Assembly (NCBI GenBank): GCA_016185945.1
Contig: JACPMR010000006.1
Coordinates: 26,423-90,422, forward strand
DNA length: 64,000 bases
Reading direction: 5' to 3'
Source: Candidatus Woesearchaeota archaeon
GTDB taxonomy: Archaea > Nanobdellota > Nanobdellia > Woesearchaeales > GW2011-AR4
Shown: positions 7,690 to 54,416 of the stretch, piece by piece
Position numbering within the stretch: the stretch's first letter is position 1
Layout: every line of letters begins with the position of its first letter
Made by a program: the position numbers and the translations under genes
Notes under the pieces: model-generated
What the model was told of the DNA's origin: nothing
Databases searched by the model: none
What the model saw: only the letters and a program-made list of their open reading frames with translations

Positions 7690-8195
7690 TGCCACAGGCA
7701 GTAGTACATGTTTTGTTTACAATAATTGTACTGGACTTGTTTAGGGACCATTTTCTGAAAAATAAGAAAAGATTGCCTTTGCACTATGTCTTTATCGGAG
7801 GCATTGCCGGTTTGTTGCCGGATATTGACATACCTTTGTTTTGGCTGCTGAATAACTTTTTGAGCCTTAATGTCACGTGGTTTCACAGGATTTTTACCCA
7901 TACATTTTTCTTTGTTTTGATATTTTTGTTTATATCCTTGATTTACTTTGATTTTAACAGAAAAGTAAGCAAGCTTTTTGCAATAATCACATTTGGGGTT
8001 GCATTCCACATCTTTCTTGACTGGTTGTTGGTGGGGGGTGTTGCGCCACTCTATCCATTTTCTGACAGAGTATACGGCTTGAATTTGATTGGAAGATTAA
8101 ATCTCCCATTAGCTATAGAGGGCCTAGAAGCGATTGTTTTGCTCTGGTGGCTCTGGCACGAAGAAAAAACTCATAAGATAAGCGACTTTATTTAA
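7689..8195 (+). CDS. Membrane-bound metal-dependent hydrolase, YdjM/DUF457 family
   Basis: A 168-residue protein with about four TM segments and the conserved metal-site motifs of the DUF457 family: His at VVHVLF (about 7), the GLLPDIDIP motif near 37-45, HRIFTHT near 62-68, and FHIFLDW near 109-115. The family is thought to act on phospholipid-related or other membrane substrates, but the reaction is not established. Start and preceding stop overlap (TAATG). It converges with a small membrane protein gene with a 4 nt overlap. Confidence 0.85.
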   Translation: MPQAVVHVLFTIIVLDLFRDHFLKNKKRLPLHYVFIGGIAGLLPDIDIPLFWLLNNFLSLNVTWFHRIFTHTFFFVLIFLFISLIYFDFNRKVSKLFAIITFGVAFHIFLDWLLVGGVAPLYPFSDRVYGLNLIGRLNLPLAIEGLEAIVLLWWLWHEEKTHKISDFI

Positions 8196-8437
8196 AACCC
8201 AGAATTCCTCATTAACCTTGCAATCAAAGCTCCAAGCAATACAATTCCAATTGCTGTGAATACATTGCTTTTTTTCTTGTTTCGGGTATAAACTACAAAG
8301 CCAGCCAGAAGAACTCCAACAATCAATGAAAACAATCTCCATCCATTGCTTAGGTTTCTGTAAAAAAGATACCATTCCACCAAAGCAACAGGAACTGAAA
8401 CAACAAGGATTAAATTCCAGTTATAGTTTTCTTCCAT
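8192..8437 (-). CDS. Small membrane protein, three TM segments, unknown
   Basis: An 81-residue hydrophobic protein with helices at about 8-24, 33-49 and 58-74, and a basic loop TRNKKKSN between the second and third. No recognisable domain. An overlapping frame on the same strand also stays open but lacks the hydrophobic periodicity, so this frame is preferred. Upstream on the same strand is the structured element at 8473-8623, which separates it from pyrH. Confidence 0.6.
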   Translation of the reverse strand: MEENYNWNLILVVSVPVALVEWYLFYRNLSNGWRLFSLIVGVLLAGFVVYTRNKKKSNVFTAIGIVLLGALIARLMRNSGF

Positions 8438-8472: not shown

Positions 8473-8623
8473 TTCAATTCGCTCGCTATCGCTCGCAAAC
8501 TTTAGTGCTCGGCAAAAATCTCCCTGCCAATCATTTTTGCCTCGCCTATATATTCAATAAACAATCAAAAGCAGTTTACTTTTATCACTTGTGGAATCTC
8601 AAAGTCGCTCTCGGGATTGAATT
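8473..8623 (-). repeat. GCGAC-family structured element, 5' module plus tail II
   Basis: Read on the minus strand: AATTCAATCCCGAGAGCGAC, then CUUU pairing with AAAG (AAAAGTAAACTGCTTTT at 8568-8584). After ATATATA comes the tail-II hairpin GGCGAGGCAAAAAT...ATTTTTGCCGAGCACTA (8501-8550) whose loop contains TGGCAG. The end (8473-8490) is a GCGAGCGATAGCGAGC palindrome where other copies have GCCGAAGGC. The stem GGCAAAAAU/AUUUUUGCC differs from other copies in compensating pairs. It lies 3' of pyrH on the same strand. Confidence 0.78.
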
Positions 8624-16968: not shown

Positions 16969-18690
16969 TTAGTGATTACTTATACACGCCTTCACAAACC
17001 CGTAAAACATAGGAGAAGGATTTCCCAATCTTGACTTAAACTCAGGATGAGCTTGAGTTCCAATCATAAATTGTCCAGGCATTTCAATGTATTCCATCAA
17101 TTTTGTCTTGTCAAATCTTTCGTAATATCCTGAAAAAACCATTCCGTTCTTTTCCAATAAATTAACATATTTCGGGTTGACTTCATACCTGTGCCTGTGC
17201 CTCTCCAAAACAATTTTTTTTCCTTTTTCTAGAATTCCCAATCTGAATGTTTGTGATTTGTCTTTCATCAATTCCTGAATTCTTTTTGTGTCTTCATGCA
17301 ATCTTCCTGTTTCTTGATACAATCTCAGCACTTGTGTTTTTTCTTTCATAACTGCTGCATAAGCTCCTAAGCGCATAGTTCCCCCATACATGTGCTTTTC
17401 AAGAATTTCCCTTTGCGCTGGCTGCACATCAATCACTGGATTTTTTGTTTTTGGCTCCACTTCTGTAGTATTGGCATCCTTTAACCCACAGACATTTCTT
17501 GCAAACTCCACAACTGCAAGCTGCAAGCCATAGCATAATCCAAGATAAGGAATTTTATTCTCTCTTGCAAATCCCGCTGCCATTATCTTGCCTTCTACCC
17601 CAGAAGCGCCAAATCCTCCTGGCACAATTATACCGTCATAATTTTTTAACTCATTCAGGTTTTTCTTGTTGTCTTCAAATTTTTTTGAATCAAGCCAGTC
17701 TATATCAACTCCAATGCCAAGCGATGCGCCTGCATGCAGCAAAGACTGGTTTATTGAAATATAGGAGTCAGCCAGATTATAGTCTCCTATGTCAATGTAT
17801 TTGCCGACAATAGCAACCTTGACATTTTTCTTTGGATTAAGTATATTCTCCACCAGTTTTTTCCACTCATTCCAGTTTGGCTGTTTTTTCGATTTCATTC
17901 CGAATTCTTTTAATATTTTCTCTCCAAGCTTCTCCTTCTCCAAGTCAAGCGGAATCTGGTAAACTGTTTCAATATCCGGCTCTGAAATGACGTGCTCTGA
18001 AATAATGTTTGCGTAAGTTTCAATTTTTTTCTTTCTTACAATATCAAGCGCCTTCTTTGCCCTGCATATTATGAAGTCGGGAAATATTCCTGACTCGCTC
18101 AGCAGCCTTATCGCCTGCTGTGTCGGCTTAGTTTTCATCTCCTCTATATGGCTTGGGATAGGCAAATATGTCACAAGAACATAGCTCAAATTATGCTTTC
18201 CAATTTCCCTTTCCAGGCTTTTTGCTGCAAACAAAAATGGAATATTTTCATAGTCTCCTATTGTTCCTCCAACTTCAATCAGCACAAAATCAAAGTCATT
18301 GCTTGTATCCTTGATTCTTCTCTTGATTTCGTCAGGAATATGCGGAATGAACTGGACTGTCTGCCCTAGATACTCGCCTTGCCTTTCCCTGTCAATTATT
18401 GTTTTGTAAACCTGCCCTGTGGTTATGTTGTTTTTCCTTGGGATGTCCATGTCAAGGAACCTTTCATATGTGCCTAAGTCTTGGTCAATTTCCCCGCCGT
18501 CATCTGTAACCCAGACTTCGCCATGCTCTGTTGGCCTTAAAGTCCCTGCATCATAGTTAAGGTAAGGGTCTATTTTTATTGCAGTTACCTTGTAGCCATG
18601 CTCCTGAAGAATCTTGCCAATAGAAGCAGTTGTAACACCTTTTCCTACTCCTGACATCACTCCGCCAGCTACAACAATGTATTTAGCCAT
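16969..18690 (-). CDS. pyrG: CTP synthase (glutamine hydrolysing)
   Basis: A 573-residue two-domain enzyme that aminates UTP to CTP. N-terminal synthase domain: GGVMSGVGKG (9-18; most homologues have VVSSLGKG), KIDPYLNYDAGT, HGEVWVTDDGGEIDQDLG and GGTIGDYEN. C-terminal class-I amidotransferase: nucleophile Cys386 in LGLCYGLQ, with His548 and Glu550 in AHPEF. A GGTGG Shine-Dalgarno lies 6 nt before the ATG and an AATTTAAATTT box about 40 nt before it. A structured element (18741-18915) lies directly upstream on the same strand but appears to end before this promoter. Confidence 0.97.
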   Translation of the reverse strand: MAKYIVVAGGVMSGVGKGVTTASIGKILQEHGYKVTAIKIDPYLNYDAGTLRPTEHGEVWVTDDGGEIDQDLGTYERFLDMDIPRKNNITTGQVYKTIIDRERQGEYLGQTVQFIPHIPDEIKRRIKDTSNDFDFVLIEVGGTIGDYENIPFLFAAKSLEREIGKHNLSYVLVTYLPIPSHIEEMKTKPTQQAIRLLSESGIFPDFIICRAKKALDIVRKKKIETYANIISEHVISEPDIETVYQIPLDLEKEKLGEKILKEFGMKSKKQPNWNEWKKLVENILNPKKNVKVAIVGKYIDIGDYNLADSYISINQSLLHAGASLGIGVDIDWLDSKKFEDNKKNLNELKNYDGIIVPGGFGASGVEGKIMAAGFARENKIPYLGLCYGLQLAVVEFARNVCGLKDANTTEVEPKTKNPVIDVQPAQREILEKHMYGGTMRLGAYAAVMKEKTQVLRLYQETGRLHEDTKRIQELMKDKSQTFRLGILEKGKKIVLERHRHRYEVNPKYVNLLEKNGMVFSGYYERFDKTKLMEYIEMPGQFMIGTQAHPEFKSRLGNPSPMFYGFVKACISNH

Positions 18691-18740: not shown

Positions 18741-18915
18741 TCAATCGGGCTTCGCCAAAATCTAGTGCTCGGCGTTGCTTTTCTGCCAGTGACATGCGAG
18801 AGCTCGCCTCTCGCTCGCTCATTCACTCGCAACGCCTCGCCTATACATTCACTAAAAACATTAGTTTGCGGGTTACCTATTTTAACTCGTGGAAGCGCAT
18901 AGGTCGCGTATTTTT
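18741..18915 (-). repeat. GCGAC-family structured element, 5' module plus tail II with an enlarged loop
   Basis: On the minus strand: ACGCGACCTAT pairs with ATAGGTAACCCGC, so the inner stem is CCUAU/AUAGG instead of CUUU/AAAG while the GA(C)/UAAC internal loop is kept. Then AATGTATAGGCGAGGCGTTGC...GCAACGCCGAGCACTA (18765-18845) with TGGCAGAAAA in the loop, and a terminal GGCGAAGCC hairpin (18745-18756) that replaces GCCGAAGGC with all pairs kept. A GAGTG...CATGTCACTGG palindromic insert of about 35 nt enlarges the main loop. The rest of the 440 nt gap before 19151 shows only promoter-like AT-rich sequence. Confidence 0.78.
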
Positions 18916-19150
18916 TTGAGAATAATTTCAGATTATTGCAAATATTTAGCTTAGAATTAAAGCAACTTGATTTGCGTTGTTGCATTACTTACAAATAAAA
19001 CAAGTTTTATTTATAGTTTATGGTTTGATGAATAGGTTGTAATTGTTTTCAATATGGAAAGAAAGATATGGTTTTGACATGTTTATTAAATTAAATCAAA
19101 TAGTTTTATAAAGTTTAGGGATTTACCATGTGTACTATAGGGTGGTTACA

Positions 19151-23511: not shown

Positions 23512-23652
23512 CAAAAGCGACTTTTAAATTTACAGCATTAAGAAAGTAAACCGCTTTTGCAGTTGCACTTTATCTTCAGCAATAAAATGCAAGAAGAGGA
23601 GGCTGTGGTTCCCTCATCACAAAAGCAGCTACAGGGAAGCCCGATTTTTGAA
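23512..23652 (+). repeat. GCGAC-family structured element, 5' module plus tail I
   Basis: AAAAGCGACTTTT (23513-23525) pairs with AGAAAGTAAACCGCTTTT (23541-23558). Tail I follows: TGCAC-TTTAT...ATAAA-ATGCA hairpin (23563-23591), then GGCT-GTGGTT-CCCT...AGGG-A-AGCC (23601-23642) and CCGATTTTTGAA. Relative to other copies the last hairpin reads GGCU/AGCC and CCCU/AGGG instead of GCU/AGC and CCCA/UGGG, keeping pairing. It lies 3' of the CARF-like gene on the same strand. An open frame crosses it but has no gene character. Confidence 0.76.
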
Positions 23653-25210: not shown

Positions 25211-25287
25211 AAATGTATTGGCGAGGCGTAACTTAGTGGCAGAAAAAGTTACGCCGAGCACTAACATATGCCGAAGGCGGATTGAAT
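25211..25287 (+). repeat. GCGAC-family tail II element without the 5' module
   Basis: AATGTATTGGCGAGGCGTAACTT...AAGTTACGCCGAGCACTAA (25211-25264), with AGTGGCAGAAAA in the loop, then GCCGAAGGC hairpin and GGATTGAATT (25270-25287). The first 50 nt are nearly identical to the copy at 29348-29398, so the two are recent duplicates. A short GAGAGTGG just upstream may be a remnant of the 5' module. It lies between the divergent helical-protein and helicase genes, reading toward the helicase. Confidence 0.78.
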
Positions 25288-28084: not shown

Positions 28085-28207
28085 ACAAGAGCGACTTTTG
28101 GCTTTCACAGGTGAAGAAAGTAAACCGCTTGTGATTGTTGTTTAATGTATAGGCGAGGTGGTTAATGCCACCGAGCACTAGAATACGCCGTAGGCAGTTT
28201 GAAAATC
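28085..28207 (+). repeat. GCGAC-family structured element, 5' module plus short tail II
   Basis: CAAGAGCGACTTTTGGCTTTCACAGG starts here (first 20: CAAGAGCGACTTTTGGCTTT); the GCGACTTT arm pairs with AAAGTAAACCGCTTGTG (28118-28134). The inner hairpin GGCTTTCACAGGTGAAG is shared word for word with the copy at 54195-54416. Then AATGTATAGGCGAGGTGG-TTAATG-CCACCGAGCACTA (28145-28180): here the tail-II stem is GGUGG/CCACC and the TGGCAG loop is lost. The end is a GCC-GTA-GGC hairpin. It lies 3' of the winged-helix gene on the same strand. Confidence 0.78.
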
Positions 28208-28260
28208 AAAATCATAAATTTACATAAAAATCAAAAAATGAGGTGAACCAGAAACTCAAG

Positions 28261-28349
28261 CTCTTCAATTTGGCCCCCTAGAAGCTTATTCTTCTAAAAA
28301 CCACCCCCACGTATAAAAGAATAAAGGGGGCCAAACCCTTATTAAAGAG
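28261..28349 (+). promoter_or_regulatory. Long inverted repeat around a TATA box upstream of the 28376 gene
   Basis: TTTGGCCCCCT (28269-28279) and AGGGGGCCAAA (28325-28335) form an 11-bp perfect stem; CTCTT (28261-28265) and AAGAG (28345-28349) extend it outside, and GAAG...CTTC sits inside. The enclosed stretch contains GTATAAAAG (28311-28319), a good archaeal TATA box about 57 nt before the ATG. So this may be an operator surrounding the promoter or, if transcribed, a structured leader or small RNA. GC-rich arms stand out in this AT-rich window. Confidence 0.5.
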
Positions 28350-29345: not shown

Positions 29346-29515
29346 TAATGTATGGCGAGGCGTAACTTAGTGGCAGAAAAAGTTACGCCGAGCACTAAAA
29401 TTCATCGAAAATCGGAGATTTTCGAGTGTGCTCAAAAATCTATGATTTTTGACATGCGAGTGTGATCGAAAATTCCTTCGGAATTTATCGACATGCCGAA
29501 GGCGGATTGAAAATT
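29346..29515 (+). repeat. GCGAC-family tail II element carrying a nested palindromic insert
   Basis: AATGTATGGCGAGGCGTAAC...GTTACGCCGAGCACTAA (29347-29397) matches the copy at 25211 almost base for base. Between that hairpin and the terminal GCCGAAGGCGGATTGAAAA (29496-29513) lie about 90 extra nt made of three hairpins: TCGAAAATCggagATTTTCGA, CAAAAATCtatGATTTTTG and TCGAAAATTCcttcGGAATTTaTCGA, with ACATGCGAGTG between. The 25211 copy lacks them, so the palindromes look inserted. It starts within 10 nt of the endonuclease V stop. Confidence 0.78.
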
Positions 29516-29546
29516 TTATAAATTGATTAAATAAACACATTCTAAA

Positions 29547-29618
29547 GGGCCCATGGTCTAGTGGCTAGGACATAACCTTCACAGGGTTAGGGCAGGAGTT
29601 CAATTCTCCTTGGGCCCA
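29547..29618 (+). tRNA. tRNA-Val (anticodon CAC)
   Basis: A 72-nt cloverleaf. The acceptor arm GGGCCCA/TGGGCCC pairs in all seven positions. D arm GTCT...GGAC with loop AGTGGCTA. Anticodon arm TAACC-TTCACAG-GGTTA: T33 then CAC at 34-36, reading GUG (Val). Variable loop GGGC, T arm AGGAG-TTCAATT-CTCCT. Discriminator A at 29618; CCA is not encoded, as usual in archaea. No intron. It is embedded between two members of the structured repeat family. Confidence 0.95.
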
Positions 29619-29672
29619 TTGAAAATTTGGAATAAATCAATAAAATCATCTTAATAAAATTAATCAAAAAAA

Positions 29673-29828
29673 TAGAACGACCTTTGTAAGTAGTTGTGAT
29701 AAAAGTAACCTGTTCTTGATGTGGGCACTATAAATCATGAAGTATATAGTGCTACATCCCTGAGCTGGGCTCCCATAACACCTTTTTGCAGATGCTGGGA
29801 AGCGACGTTTTTTGAAATATTTTTGATT
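29673..29828 (+). repeat. GCGAC-family structured element, 5' module plus tail I
   Basis: AGAACGACCTTT (29675-29686) pairs with AAAAGTAACCTGTTCT (29700-29715): the outer stem here is AGAAC/GUUCU where most copies have GAGAGC/GCUUUU, a compensated change. Tail I: GGGCACTATA...TATAGTGCT (29723-29752), then CTGAGCT-GGGCT-CCCA...TGGG-A-AGC (29760-29803) and GACGTTTTTTGAAATATTTTTGATT. The last 20 nt are the same as in the 33848 copy. It starts about 55 nt after the tRNA-Val gene, same strand. Confidence 0.8.
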
Positions 29829-33847: not shown

Positions 33848-34005
33848 CAAAAACGAGAGCGACTTTGAAATCCAACAAGTGATAAAAGTAAACCGCTTTT
33901 GCAGAAGGCACTTTCTAAAGTAAGTATATAGTGCCACATTCCTGAGCTGGGTTCCCATTCCACCCTTGCTTTTGTTGGGAAGCGACGTTTTTTGAAATAT
34001 ATTTT
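33848..34005 (+). repeat. GCGAC-family structured element, 5' module plus tail I (reference copy)
   Basis: AAAAACGAGAGCGACTTT pairs as GAGAGCG/CGCTTTT outside and CTTT/AAAG inside (AAAAGTAAACCGCTTTT, 33884-33900), leaving a GAC-side and UAAAC-side internal loop. A GTGATA precedes the 3' arm. Tail I: GGCACT...AGTGCC (33907-33934), CCTGAGCT-GGGTT-CCCA...TGGG-A-AGC (33940-33982), GACGTTTTTTGAAATAT. This is the most complete copy and I use it as the reference. It lies 50 nt 3' of pcm on the same strand; the run of T may terminate transcription. Confidence 0.82.
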
Positions 34006-38760: not shown

Positions 38761-39315
38761 ATGAAAAGGTGCCAATGGGCAGAAGGCAGTGAATTAATGA
38801 AGGAGTACCATGACAAGGAATGGGGCACTCCAATCCATGATGACAGAGCCTTGTTTGAATTCTTGACACTGGAAGGGGCACAGGCTGGTCTCACGTGGCT
38901 CATTATATTAAAAAAGAGGGAAGGCTACAGAAAAGCCTTTGAAAACTTTGACATCAAAAAAATAGCCAAATATGACGGCAGAAAAGTCAAAGAGCTTCTT
39001 TCAAATCCAGAGATAATTAGGAACCGACTCAAAATAGAAGCCACAATAAATAATGCAAAGTGCTTTTTAAAAATAATGGAAGAATTTGGTTCATTTGACA
39101 AATATATTTGGCAGTTTGTTAATTATAAAACCATCAAAAATCACTTTGAGTCCTTGGAAGAGATTCCTGCAAAGACAAAAGAATCTGATGCCATATCCAA
39201 TGACCTTCGAAAGAGAGGCTTCAAGTTTGTTGGCTCAACAATATGCTACGCTTTCATGCAGGCTGTTGGAATGGTAGACGATCATTTGGAAAGTTGTTTT
39301 AGAAAGAGAAAATAA
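38761..39315 (+). CDS. tag: DNA-3-methyladenine glycosylase I
   Basis: A 184-residue glycosylase that removes 3-methyladenine from DNA. MKRCQWAEGSELMKEYHDKEWG carries the zinc ligands Cys4 and His17; LTLEGAQAGLTW holds the active-site Glu38; the C-terminal VDDHLESCF gives His175 and Cys179, completing the zinc site. NNAKCFLKIMEEFGSF and ISNDLRKRGFKFVGSTICYAFMQAVGM fit the family. Length and motifs are complete. It is the full-length relative of the short gene at 36901, from which it is separated by a helicase gene in opposite orientation. Confidence 0.95.
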   Translation: MKRCQWAEGSELMKEYHDKEWGTPIHDDRALFEFLTLEGAQAGLTWLIILKKREGYRKAFENFDIKKIAKYDGRKVKELLSNPEIIRNRLKIEATINNAKCFLKIMEEFGSFDKYIWQFVNYKTIKNHFESLEEIPAKTKESDAISNDLRKRGFKFVGSTICYAFMQAVGMVDDHLESCFRKRK

Positions 39316-39384
39316 CGACAACTCGCCGCTCGGGGCTGACTGCACCCTAAAGGGATGTGGTATTACGCCCCTCGCCAATATTGC
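39314..39384 (-). repeat. Divergent tail II-like element
   Basis: On the minus strand TTGGCGAGGGGC...GCCCCGAGCGGCGAG (39324-39378), the GGCGA-G...C-CGAGC frame of tail II with the stem replaced by GGGGC/GCCCC. The loop carries ATCCCTTTAGGGT, a further hairpin, and lacks TGGCAG. It lies 3' of copA on the same strand and ends against the tag stop codon of the other strand. It is the most diverged member I can place, so its membership is uncertain. Confidence 0.5.
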
Positions 39385-43681: not shown

Positions 43682-43815
43682 GGTGACACATTTTTTTTGC
43701 ATAGTGTCAAGCACACTGCTGTACGCCTTGATACTTCCAACTTTAAAGGCAACAGTTAAAGCAGTTCACTTTCTTCACTTTACTTCTCAAAGTCGCTCTC
43801 GTTAGTGATTGAATT
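43682..43815 (-). repeat. GCGAC-family structured element, 5' module with a diverged tail
   Basis: On the minus strand AATCACTAACGAGAGCGACT starts the module; CTTTGAG...AAGTGAACTGC closes it (GAAAGTGAACTGCTTTAA, so UAA is changed to UGA). Then GTTGCCTTTAAAG and a hairpin GTATCAAG...CTTGACAC (43706-43731) and TATGCAAAAAAAATGTGTCACC. Neither standard tail is intact. It lies about 110 nt 3' of the osmC gene on the same strand. The rest of the 43481-43922 gap holds a promoter dyad and otherwise nothing I can identify. Confidence 0.65.
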
Positions 43816-50543: not shown

Positions 50544-50795
50544 AATTCAATCCCGAGAGCGTCCTTTGGAAGCATAGTGAATAAGGTATCGAAAATGCTC
50601 CGAATTTTCGGAACTCCCGAAAATCCCCGACTTGTGAGCGAGTTCGCTTCGAACGAAGCTCACTCGCATGCCACGGATTTTCGATAGAGACCTGCTTTTG
50701 CTGTCGCACTCTTAAGTTAAGAGTTATAGTGCAGCTTTCCTGAGCTGGGTTCCCATTAATGCCTGCAGATGATGGGAAGCGACGTTTTTGAATTA
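50544..50795 (+). repeat. GCGAC-family structured element, tail I, with a 100-nt palindromic insert
   Basis: AATTCAATCCCGAGAGCGTCC (first 20: AATTCAATCCCGAGAGCGTC) and ACCTGCTTTTGC (50689-50703) are the two ends of the 5' module. In the 3' arm, where UAA should be, about 110 nt are inserted: TATCGAAAAT...ATTTTCGATA enclosing CTCCCGAAAATC and GTGAGCGAGTTCGC-ttc-GAACGAAGCTCAC. Tail I is intact: GCACTCTTAA...TTATAGTGC (50706-50732), CCTGAGCT-GGGTT-CCCAT...ATGGG-A-AGC (50739-50780), GACGTTTTTGAATT. This copy runs opposite to both flanking genes. Confidence 0.78.
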
Positions 50796-54194: not shown

Positions 54195-54416
54195 AACAAT
54201 CCGAGACATGGAAAGCGAGCCTGCGACATGCGTGCGAGCTTGTGAGCACGCTCACAAGCAACAGCTTTCCTCGCAGGCAGGTCCCATGCGCTTCTAGACA
54301 GCGAAATGGGTGCCCCTCCTATATCTGATTGCACTATAATGCAAATATTTCAAGTGCATCAGCAAAAGCGGTTTACTTTCTTCACCTGTGAAAGCCAAAA
54401 GTCGCTCTCGTGTTGT
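54195..54416 (-). repeat. GCGAC-family structured element with variant tail I
   Basis: On the minus strand: CACGAGAGCGACTTTTGGCT starts the 5' module, closed by AAGAAAGTAAACCGCTTTTGC (last 20 nt of it). The loop hairpin GGCTTTCACAGGTGAAG is the same as in the 28085 copy. Then TGCACTT...TATAGTGCA (tail I first hairpin) and GGCA-CCCAT...ATGGG-ACC-TGCC, a changed version of the second hairpin. A long GC-rich palindrome follows, including CTTGTGAGCGTGCTCACAAG, a perfect dyad, with ACATGCG words. It lies 30 nt 3' of lgt on the same strand. Confidence 0.75.

What the first reader, a model, noticed from the sequence alone, without database searches (positions are those of the whole stretch)
33848..34005. 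A dispersed family of intergenic elements that look like structured RNA (at least twelve copies in 64 kb)
Copies at 8473-8623(-), 18741-18915(-), 23512-23652(+), 25211-25287(+), 28085-28207(+), 29346-29515(+), 29673-29828(+), 33848-34005(+), 39314-39384(- , weak), 43682-43815(-), 50544-50795(+), 54195-54416(-). Nine share the 5' module GAGAGC-GAC-CUUU...AAAG-UAAACC-GCUUUU. Hairpin arms vary in compensating pairs (outer stem GAGAGC/GCUUUU against AGAAC/GUUCU; inner CUUU/AAAG against CCUAU/AUAGG), while the unpaired GAC and UAA sides and several loops stay fixed, as selection on RNA structure would give. No reading frame is kept. I do not recognise this as a published RNA or IS family.
Basis: partly seen in the sequence, partly recalled or inferred. 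Interest (0 to 1): 0.93.

Follow-up and report, generated by a model that had tools for sequence, protein, structure and literature searches.

The report
Hairpin repeats capping archaeal messages
This Woesearchaeota genome carries about a hundred copies of a short repeat made of inverted hairpin-forming ends, mostly set in the reading direction beside genes and often kept at the same genes in related species, so it probably spread as a mobile element and now likely serves as a folded cap on messenger RNAs.

Summary
The 5' module recurs 96 times in the 1.5-Mb genome at E<=0.01. It occurs in 17 of 20 genomes of the genus; in an order-wide sample of 287 genomes the one match outside the genus looks like chance. 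Pairs covary (one is A-U in 66 and U-A in 34 of 100 copies, never broken). Rfam has no match.

New here: the 5' module is homologous to the inverted right end of type-B copies (44 of 44 beat their shuffle), so the family is built from inverted hairpin ends, like a MITE. Unlike the repeats compared here, copies lie in sense (61:8 in co-directional gaps; 41:5 in relatives) and recur at orthologous genes (15/18 against 18/73 for controls). In this genome, type A and module-only copies precede a same-strand gene in 42 of 44 cases; in relatives that link is weaker (47 of 63). At S19e and pyrG, copies or single ends sit between a predicted promoter and the start codon; some species have empty leaders. 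No target-site duplication, transposase link or closing stem was found.

Verdict: an exapted, MITE-like UTR element; the mRNA function is inferred.

The parts
33855..33901 (+). Left end / 5' module (P2 hairpin: GAGAGCG-ACUUU..AAAGU-AAAC-CGCUUUU) of the index copy
   Evidence: R1 67.3 bits (one of the 7 model sequences); covariation
33908..33935 (+). P3 hairpin GGCACU..AGUGCC of the index copy (type B)
   Evidence: P3B permutation z -7.1
33944..33996 (+). Right B-type end (P4 GAGCTGGGTTCCCA..TGGGAAGCG plus tip TTTTTTGAA), inverted homologue of the left end
8473..8612 (-). Type A copy; left module 8566-8612; co-directional, before the ORF 8192-8437
18741..18907 (-). Type A copy before pyrG (16969-18690; gene name recalled); left module is the pyrG-specific variant 18868-18907, with a nested palindrome in the right half (by eye)
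23512..23652 (+). Type B1 copy in a convergent gap; left module 23513-23559
25211..25287 (+). Type A right end without left module, before an XPD-like helicase gene
28085..28207 (+). Type A copy; left module 28087-28133
29346..29515 (+). Type A right end without left module, with nested hairpins, just before tRNA-Val (29547-29618)
29673..29828 (+). Type B2 copy just after tRNA-Val; left module 29673-29718 (AGAAC/GUUCU variant)
39314..39384 (-). Weak A-like fragment GGCGAGGGGC..GCCCCGAGC
   Evidence: by eye; no model match
43682..43815 (-). Copy with left module 43756-43800 and a divergent right half, assigned to type B by hand
50544..50795 (+). Type B2 copy with about 100 nt of nested palindromes in the bulge of the left module; antisense to both neighbours
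   Evidence: by eye
54195..54416 (-). Type B3 copy with a nested palindrome; left module 54363-54409; convergent gap

Best explanation
This is a family of short interspersed elements, found only in one genus, built from two inverted hairpin-forming ends and mostly set in the sense direction before or after genes, where the folded RNA likely acts as a protective and insulating cap on the predicted leader or trailer of the message.

Shown: the left end (P2) and the type-B right end are inverted homologues. P2, P3 and P4 covary as local hairpins. Copies are sense-biased, recur at orthologous genes, and are present or absent at the same gap in different species.

In this genome two outputs of one layout are shown as a statistical split. 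Left end alone or plus an A end runs on into about 35 nt of A-rich sequence and a start codon. Left end plus a B end tends to run into T-rich sequence and may lie at 3' ends.

Inferred: the copies spread as a MITE-like mobile element, now largely quiet. They are retained because hairpins near mRNA ends shield against exonucleases and separate cistrons, while leaving the ribosome site open in the A form and aiding 3'-end formation in the B form.
For: Covariation: score 0.246 against shuffled 0.131 and slid at most 0.094; other species, 16 double changes against 2.0 shuffled, 0 of 500; P2 inner z -10.4 and outer z -8.8, P3B -7.1, P4B -4.9; P3A -8.5, P4A -7.1.

Inverted ends: (mean score to left ends 4.93 for reverse-complemented B right ends, 0.44 sense, -0.09 and 0.22 shuffled; 44 of 44); weak support (16 of 50 touch a left-end profile; 0, 0, 2 and 0 of 50 in four controls).

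Strand: (61:8, p 3e-11; relatives 41:5, p 4e-8).

Class and context in G000: (42/44 against 33/58, p 8e-6; convergent gaps 0/44 against 19/58; T5 run downstream 7% A, 0% module-only, 61% B; A end to start codon median 35 nt, 27 copies).

Retention: (15/18 against 18/73; 14/17 against 13/76). S19e leader: 13 of 16 species have a copy or an end, and G008 and G014 have short empty leaders; paired columns 0.94 identical, bulge 0.80, loop 0.63 among 8 modules. pyrG: a locus-specific module shared by G000, G018 and G005 (by eye).
Against: No RNA data exist here; transcription is inferred from TATA-like boxes and gene order. In one search two of five covariation measures do not exceed the shuffles (pairs changed on both sides 54 of 500, further pair types 383 of 500). 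The tips do not covary as a closing stem (z -0.2 and -0.6). Left and right ends of one element are no more alike than ends of different elements (z 0.59). No target-site duplication (60 copies, 6 lengths, only 4 nt near 0.02 uncorrected).

Context is weaker in relatives: 10 of 65 A or unclassed copies lie in convergent gaps, and the next gene is on the same strand in 47 of 63 with a known one. A-end pattern matches without a left module show no strand bias (5 same, 6 opposite, 5 without a called gene; a loose pattern). 8 of 102 copies are antisense to both neighbours, and B also occurs in divergent gaps (11 of 58). Orthologous modules are only somewhat closer than others (median rank 23 of 102, 15 pairs). 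The S19e identities come from modules found by the model, which favours paired columns. Gene calls are from a home-made caller and classes are partly hand-assigned.
Confidence: 0.55

Rival explanations
1. A selfish MITE family with no use to the host: it inserts by its inverted ends, and sense copies remain because antisense or promoter-disrupting ones are lost.
For: Inverted homologous ends; TTCAA-like words at the left tip in 67 of 87 copies against 23 of 87 further upstream, and TTGAA-like words at the right in 77 of 87 without a control; presence/absence at the same gap; 0 to 94 copies per genome; nested insertions.
Against: Paired columns kept better than the loop at S19e (0.94 and 0.63), orthologous recurrence, placement about 35 nt before start codons and 0 of 44 in convergent gaps in G000 (weaker in relatives). 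No duplicated target and no transposase link in the two families searched.
Confidence: 0.28
2. A true regulatory leader RNA (protein- or ligand-binding) defining a regulon, with the right ends as interchangeable expression platforms.
For: Near-invariant module positions, unpaired ones among them (A 100%, C 97% in the bulge), leader position, and different right ends at orthologous genes (B in G000, A in a relative).
Against: Many unrelated genes (names recalled from their N-termini) and tRNA-Val; 19 of 58 B copies in convergent gaps; S19e already has its own conserved leader hairpins.
Confidence: 0.1
3. Independent small RNA genes: type B is a stand-alone transcript ending in a U tract.
For: T run of 5 or more within 50 nt downstream in 61% of 51 B copies; B in divergent (11) and antisense (6) positions; TATA-like boxes upstream of some.
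Against: Sense bias also holds for B in co-directional gaps (22 against 6); A and module-only copies lie close before start codons.
Confidence: 0.07

Closest known systems
BOX elements of Streptococcus pneumoniae (PMC3049150, passages read)
   Same: Short, intergenic, modular repeats of high copy that are predicted to fold as RNA, can be co-transcribed as 5' or 3' extensions of operons, and in one case lie inside a leader (between T boxes); pneumococcal repeats also insert into one another (PMC10969869).
   Different: BOX, RUP and SPRITE mirror the coding bias (60.8, 60.9 and 63.3% on the leading strand) and are enriched in convergent gaps; here copies are sense to both genes 61:8 in co-directional gaps, and in G000 A or module-only copies are absent from convergent gaps (0 of 44). 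Sequence and host domain differ.
Correia/NEMIS and ERIC elements (review PMC10969869, passages read)
   Same: MITE-like repeats that enter transcripts; Correia/NEMIS RNA is cut by RNase III and ERIC can expose RNase E sites, so an mRNA-processing role is the nearest precedent for mechanism.
   Different: No duplicated target and no related transposase found here; each end folds on itself, and the two ends do not covary with each other.
Archaeal r-protein leaders and other cis-regulatory RNAs (PMC7247131, passages read)
   Same: Structured 5' leaders with covariation, upstream of genes.
   Different: Each leader there belongs to particular r-protein genes; here many unrelated genes, exchangeable right ends and copies after genes. 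No Rfam match to a copy.
Rickettsia palindromic elements (named in passages of PMC3049150 and PMC10969869)
   Same: Like the small nested palindromes seen inside these copies and in-frame in an L30e gene of relatives.
   Different: Those palindromes are a second repeat layer, not the element itself.

Membership tests
MITE (non-autonomous DNA transposon) | Short, no open reading frame kept, many copies | tested here: met
   About 165 nt without inserts, 96 copies at E<=0.01; no coding test beyond variable lengths and inserts
MITE (non-autonomous DNA transposon) | Terminal inverted repeats | tested here: inconclusive
   Left end homologous to inverted B right end in 44 of 44, left tip words enriched; but ends of one copy do not match each other better (z 0.59), tips do not pair, and A ends are a different module
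MITE (non-autonomous DNA transposon) | Target-site duplication | tested here: inconclusive
   None clear at 2-8 nt in 60 copies; A-rich flanks and uncertain tips limit the power
MITE (non-autonomous DNA transposon) | Related autonomous transposon in the host | tested here: inconclusive
   Y1 transposase 0 in G000, 8 of 20 in genus; TnpB zinc ribbon only two matches below the cut-off in G000; other transposase families not searched
IS200/IS605-derived (REP/RAYT-like) repeats | Y1 transposase partner in the host | tested here: not met
   G000, with the most copies, has none (genome 90.7% complete)
Known structured RNA family (Rfam 15) | Covariance-model match at gathering score | tested here: not met
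   Only tRNA-Val in the window; no match in 11 related loci
Structured RNA (generic) | Covariation in excess of shuffled and slid controls | tested here: met
   two of five measures do not exceed the shuffles
BOX-like small interspersed repeats | Modular, intergenic, RNA-folding, co-transcribed repeats | not testable with these tools
   Modularity and location met; co-transcription needs RNA data

The most novel reading that the evidence does not exclude
Probability: 0.17. Interest if true: 0.87.

Novelty: new variant of a known kind. Interest (0 to 1): 0.62.

Why it matters
Small interspersed repeats are usually treated as neutral or parasitic. This one offers about a hundred natural replicates, with empty sites at the same addresses in sister species (S19e, pyrG, S12-S7, RpoA'-L30e), to test directly whether repeat-derived hairpins become mRNA control elements. 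It would also be a lead on untranslated-region biology in Woesearchaeota, of which no laboratory genetics is known to me (recalled, not searched).

Tried and rejected
A closing stem P1 (TTCAATC/GATTGAA): rejected, own pairs no better than shuffled.

Upstream reading frame starting at the ATG after the module: considered by eye, no frame kept; dropped.

BHB or K-turn reading of the bulge: no matching geometry by recall; not tested by tool; dropped.

IS605/TnpB guide RNA origin: no Y1 match, and only two TnpB matches below the cut-off, in G000.

Viral or plasmid origin: 0 matches for a 5'-module pattern in IMG/VR; the index copy has no similar DNA in the phage or plasmid collections.

Spread beyond the genus: the only outside match (G044) lies inside a called ORF and was judged chance.

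Corrections and limits: note 2 says 97 copies and 18 of 20 genomes; the outputs give 96 at E<=0.01 and 17 of 20 in the genus (18 of 59 in all). The first alignment misaligned the pyrG copy and was dropped. Classes were set by regular expressions; 16 copies were then reassigned by hand before the counts. In one search the held G000 DNA is enriched for copies, which inflates the percentages but should leave the odds ratio roughly right. The P4B segments were picked by patterns of the known subfamilies (50 of 51 used), which leans towards pairing. In one search the mean profile score of the reversed B ends is -0.19 bits, so that test is weak. In one search six type-A copies were left out of P3A and at least one segment was cut wrongly. 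In one search four distances are negative because starts were called too early. In one search the model found none of the pyrG leader modules; those were read by eye. On re-reading, relatives have A and unclassed copies in convergent gaps; for that reason the probability of the novel case was lowered from 0.20 to 0.17.

Full report
WHAT WAS CHECKED. The window is G000:C5:26423-90422 of a 1,506,178-base, 24-contig genome. It encodes XPD-like helicase and V-ATPase proteins, and a genome-collection scan for the 5' module returned 68 stretches, all titled Candidatus Woesearchaeota. Rfam 15 finds only tRNA-Val in the window at gathering score; a laxer scan adds two chance-level matches away from the copies. 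The twelve copies were read out and modelled. R1 (47 positions, 12 pairs, from 7 window copies) finds these 7 again by construction and the 18741 copy weakly. In the whole genome R1 gives 102 matches at E<=1, 96 of them at E<=0.01; a plain pattern gives 32 against 0 in the reversed control.

STRUCTURE. On 100 distinct genome copies, 94.3% of cells pair; the covariation score is 0.246 (shuffled 0.131, slid at most 0.094). Pair 8-81 is A-U in 66 and U-A in 34 with none broken, pair 10-79 U-A 58 and C-G 38 (4 unpaired), pair 5-88 G-C 89 and A-U 9 (none broken). Two of the five measures do not exceed the shuffles: pairs with a change on both sides (6 against 4.5; 54 of 500) and further pair types (14 against 14.5; 383 of 500). 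Related sequences inflate such shuffles, and many of these changes separate two subfamilies, ACUUU/AAAGU and UCCUU/AAGGA, so they are not 34 independent events. On 91 distinct rows from other species, 7 pairs and 16 cells change on both sides against 1.7 and 2.0 expected (0 of 500 each). Two pairs have G-U as their commonest form; outside them G-U 13 and A-C 4 cells in G000, 8 and 6 in relatives, so strand polarity from wobble pairs is weak. Permuting partners between copies supports P2 inner (z -10.4), P2 outer (-8.8), P3 of type B (-7.1), P4 of type B (-4.9), P3 of type A (-8.5, 23 of 29 copies) and P4 of type A (-7.1). It does not support a closing stem between the TTCAATC and GATTGAA tips (z -0.2 for 51 B and -0.6 for 27 A copies).

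MODULES. After regular-expression sorting and hand reassignment of 16 copies, the 102 fall into A 29, module-only 15 and B 58. Type A typically ends in GGCGAGGC..GCCGAGCACTA plus a hairpin with a GAA-like loop and GGATTGAA. Type B typically ends in a GCAC..GUGC hairpin plus a bulged hairpin such as GGGYUCCC..GGGAAGC or GGGGCACCC..GGGTCGC.

INVERTED ENDS. Read backwards, the left module is GCG-GTTT-ACTTT..AAAGT-CGC, the same layout as the B right end GCG-GGGC-ACCCA..TGGGT-CGC. In 44 B copies without large inserts, the reverse-complemented right end aligns to left ends with mean score 4.93, against 0.44 for the sense strand, -0.09 and 0.22 for dinucleotide-preserving shuffles, and 0.64 for the P3 region; 44 of 44 beat their own shuffle. 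A left-end profile touches 16 of 50 reverse-complemented B ends but weakly (mean -0.19, at most 6.6 bits), against 0 of 50 for the sense strand and 0, 2 and 0 of 50 for three shuffles; A ends match in neither direction (0 of 29). In relatives, by eye, L251 and L221 hold an inverted A end followed by an A end, and L239 and L299 an inverted B-like end followed by an A end. So the family is made of end modules used in inverted pairs. Within one copy the two ends are no more alike than ends of different copies (z 0.59, 43 copies), and no clear target duplication was found, so recent transposition is not seen.

PLACE AND STRAND. Flanking genes come from a home-made ORF caller. In co-directional gaps 61 copies are sense and 8 antisense (p 3e-11); in 68 stretches from relatives 41 and 5 (p 4e-8). 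In G000 the next gene is on the same strand for 42 of 44 A or module-only copies and 33 of 58 B copies (p 8e-6); convergent gaps hold 0 of 44 and 19 of 58. In relatives this is weaker: of 65 A or unclassed copies, 10 lie in convergent gaps, and the next gene is on the same strand in 47 of 63 where one was called. Loose-pattern A ends without a left module in G000 show no bias (5 same, 6 opposite, 5 without a called gene). In G000, A ends lie a median of 35 nt before the called start (27 copies). A run of five T follows within 50 nt in 7% of A, 0% of module-only and 61% of B copies (29, 15 and 51 measured). The 40 nt upstream are 56-61% A and 2-5% G.

HISTORY. In the genus 17 of 20 genomes match R1 at E<=0.01, and outside it 1 of 39, in G044. 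A second model (R2, from the 106 rows of A4) was run over 287 genomes drawn from the order: 10 genomes of the genus match, and of the other 277 only G044, inside a called ORF. Of 18 relative genes with a copy upstream and an orthologue in held G000 DNA, 15 orthologues have one too, against 18 of 73 control genes (p 7e-6); for copies downstream, 14 of 17 against 13 of 76 (p 6e-7). Held DNA is enriched for copies, so only the odds ratios should be used. The right end can differ between orthologous copies, for instance B in G000 and A in a relative, and orthologous modules rank a median 23rd of 102 in similarity (15 pairs).

TEST LOCI. S19e (name recalled): 16 loci carry the full gene (L236-L251). 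The 15 leaders printed all carry the same two short hairpins; L238 was not printed because the script missed its gene, and its module is. Between these hairpins and the start codon lie a left module by model in 8 species, an A end without it in 5 (by eye) and nothing in 3 (G014, G008, G012); in G014 and G008 the leader then runs almost directly into the start codon. Paired columns of the 8 modules are 0.94 identical, the bulge 0.80, the loop 0.63. pyrG (name recalled): of 21 leaders printed, 1 has a misplaced start; of the other 20, 9 (in 8 genomes) hold an element or A end and 11 none, one of these (L283) read only in part; G000, G018 and G005 share a pyrG-specific module, which model R2 misses. 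In the S12-S7 and RpoA'-L30e gaps of the RNA polymerase/ribosomal cluster, G000 has copies in both, G013 (by model) and G006 (by eye) in the first and G018 in the second; several others have gaps of a few bases. These are gains or losses at fixed addresses.

MECHANISM. The best account is a MITE-like element that spread in the ancestor of the genus and was retained in sense as hairpin caps in untranslated regions. A ends leave an A-rich open stretch before the start codon; B ends tend to run into U tracts. Exonuclease shielding, cistron insulation and help with 3'-end formation are inferences with precedents in NEMIS, ERIC and BOX (PMC10969869 and PMC3049150, passages read).

KNOWN OR NEW. Searches of an open-licence library listed, among the rows shown, no paper on such elements in Woesearchaeota; subscription journals and preprints are not held. 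Passages of three papers were read (PMC3049150, PMC7247131, PMC10969869); of the others only listings were seen.

Noticed in passing
window 50618-50720 and 29406-29500; L006, L022, L105, L114; L232 and L221 near the L30e gene: A second layer of small nested palindromes (GACATGCGAGTGAGC.., CGAAAATC..GATTTTCG and others) sits in loops and bulges of the copies and in other spacers, and in relatives also in-frame in the N-terminal part of an L30e gene, as Rickettsia palindromic elements do.
   Followed up: partly
L236-L251, leader of the S19e gene (for example L249 before the start codon): A conserved two-hairpin leader (GCTAAC..GTTAGC and CACCGCAAGGTG) precedes the S19e gene in all 15 species printed; no Rfam match in the 4 of these loci that were scanned (L236, L242, L243, L249). 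A candidate ribosomal-protein leader.
   Followed up: partly
window about 19000-19070, minus strand (upstream of pyrG); L276-L291: A well conserved promoter block with a palindrome (TTTCAATATTGAAAA) and ACCATAAACTATAAATAAAAC precedes pyrG in most of the leaders printed.
   Followed up: no
L052 (G000:C3:65735 minus) and some other B1 copies: The 3' tail of some B1 copies is repeated in tandem, about 45 nt per unit (GGAAGCC..GATTGAA..TTGTTTTTTA), units ending in a T run.
   Followed up: no
L179, L180, L187, L201, L211, L213; reverse-complement-like part near window 28230-28330: A conserved stretch of about 90 nt with GTTGGGGGTGGTTTT and hairpins lies just after the copies in several species; no Rfam match in 5 loci scanned.
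   Followed up: partly
G000:C11:20463, C11:81245, C3:133767 (upstream stretches): Truncated left ends (ACGAGAGC.. without a 3' half) lie roughly 50-110 nt upstream of full copies, as if relics of earlier insertions.
   Followed up: no
window 29346-29828: The tRNA-Val gene is bracketed by a type A end before it and a type B2 copy after it, both in sense.
   Followed up: no
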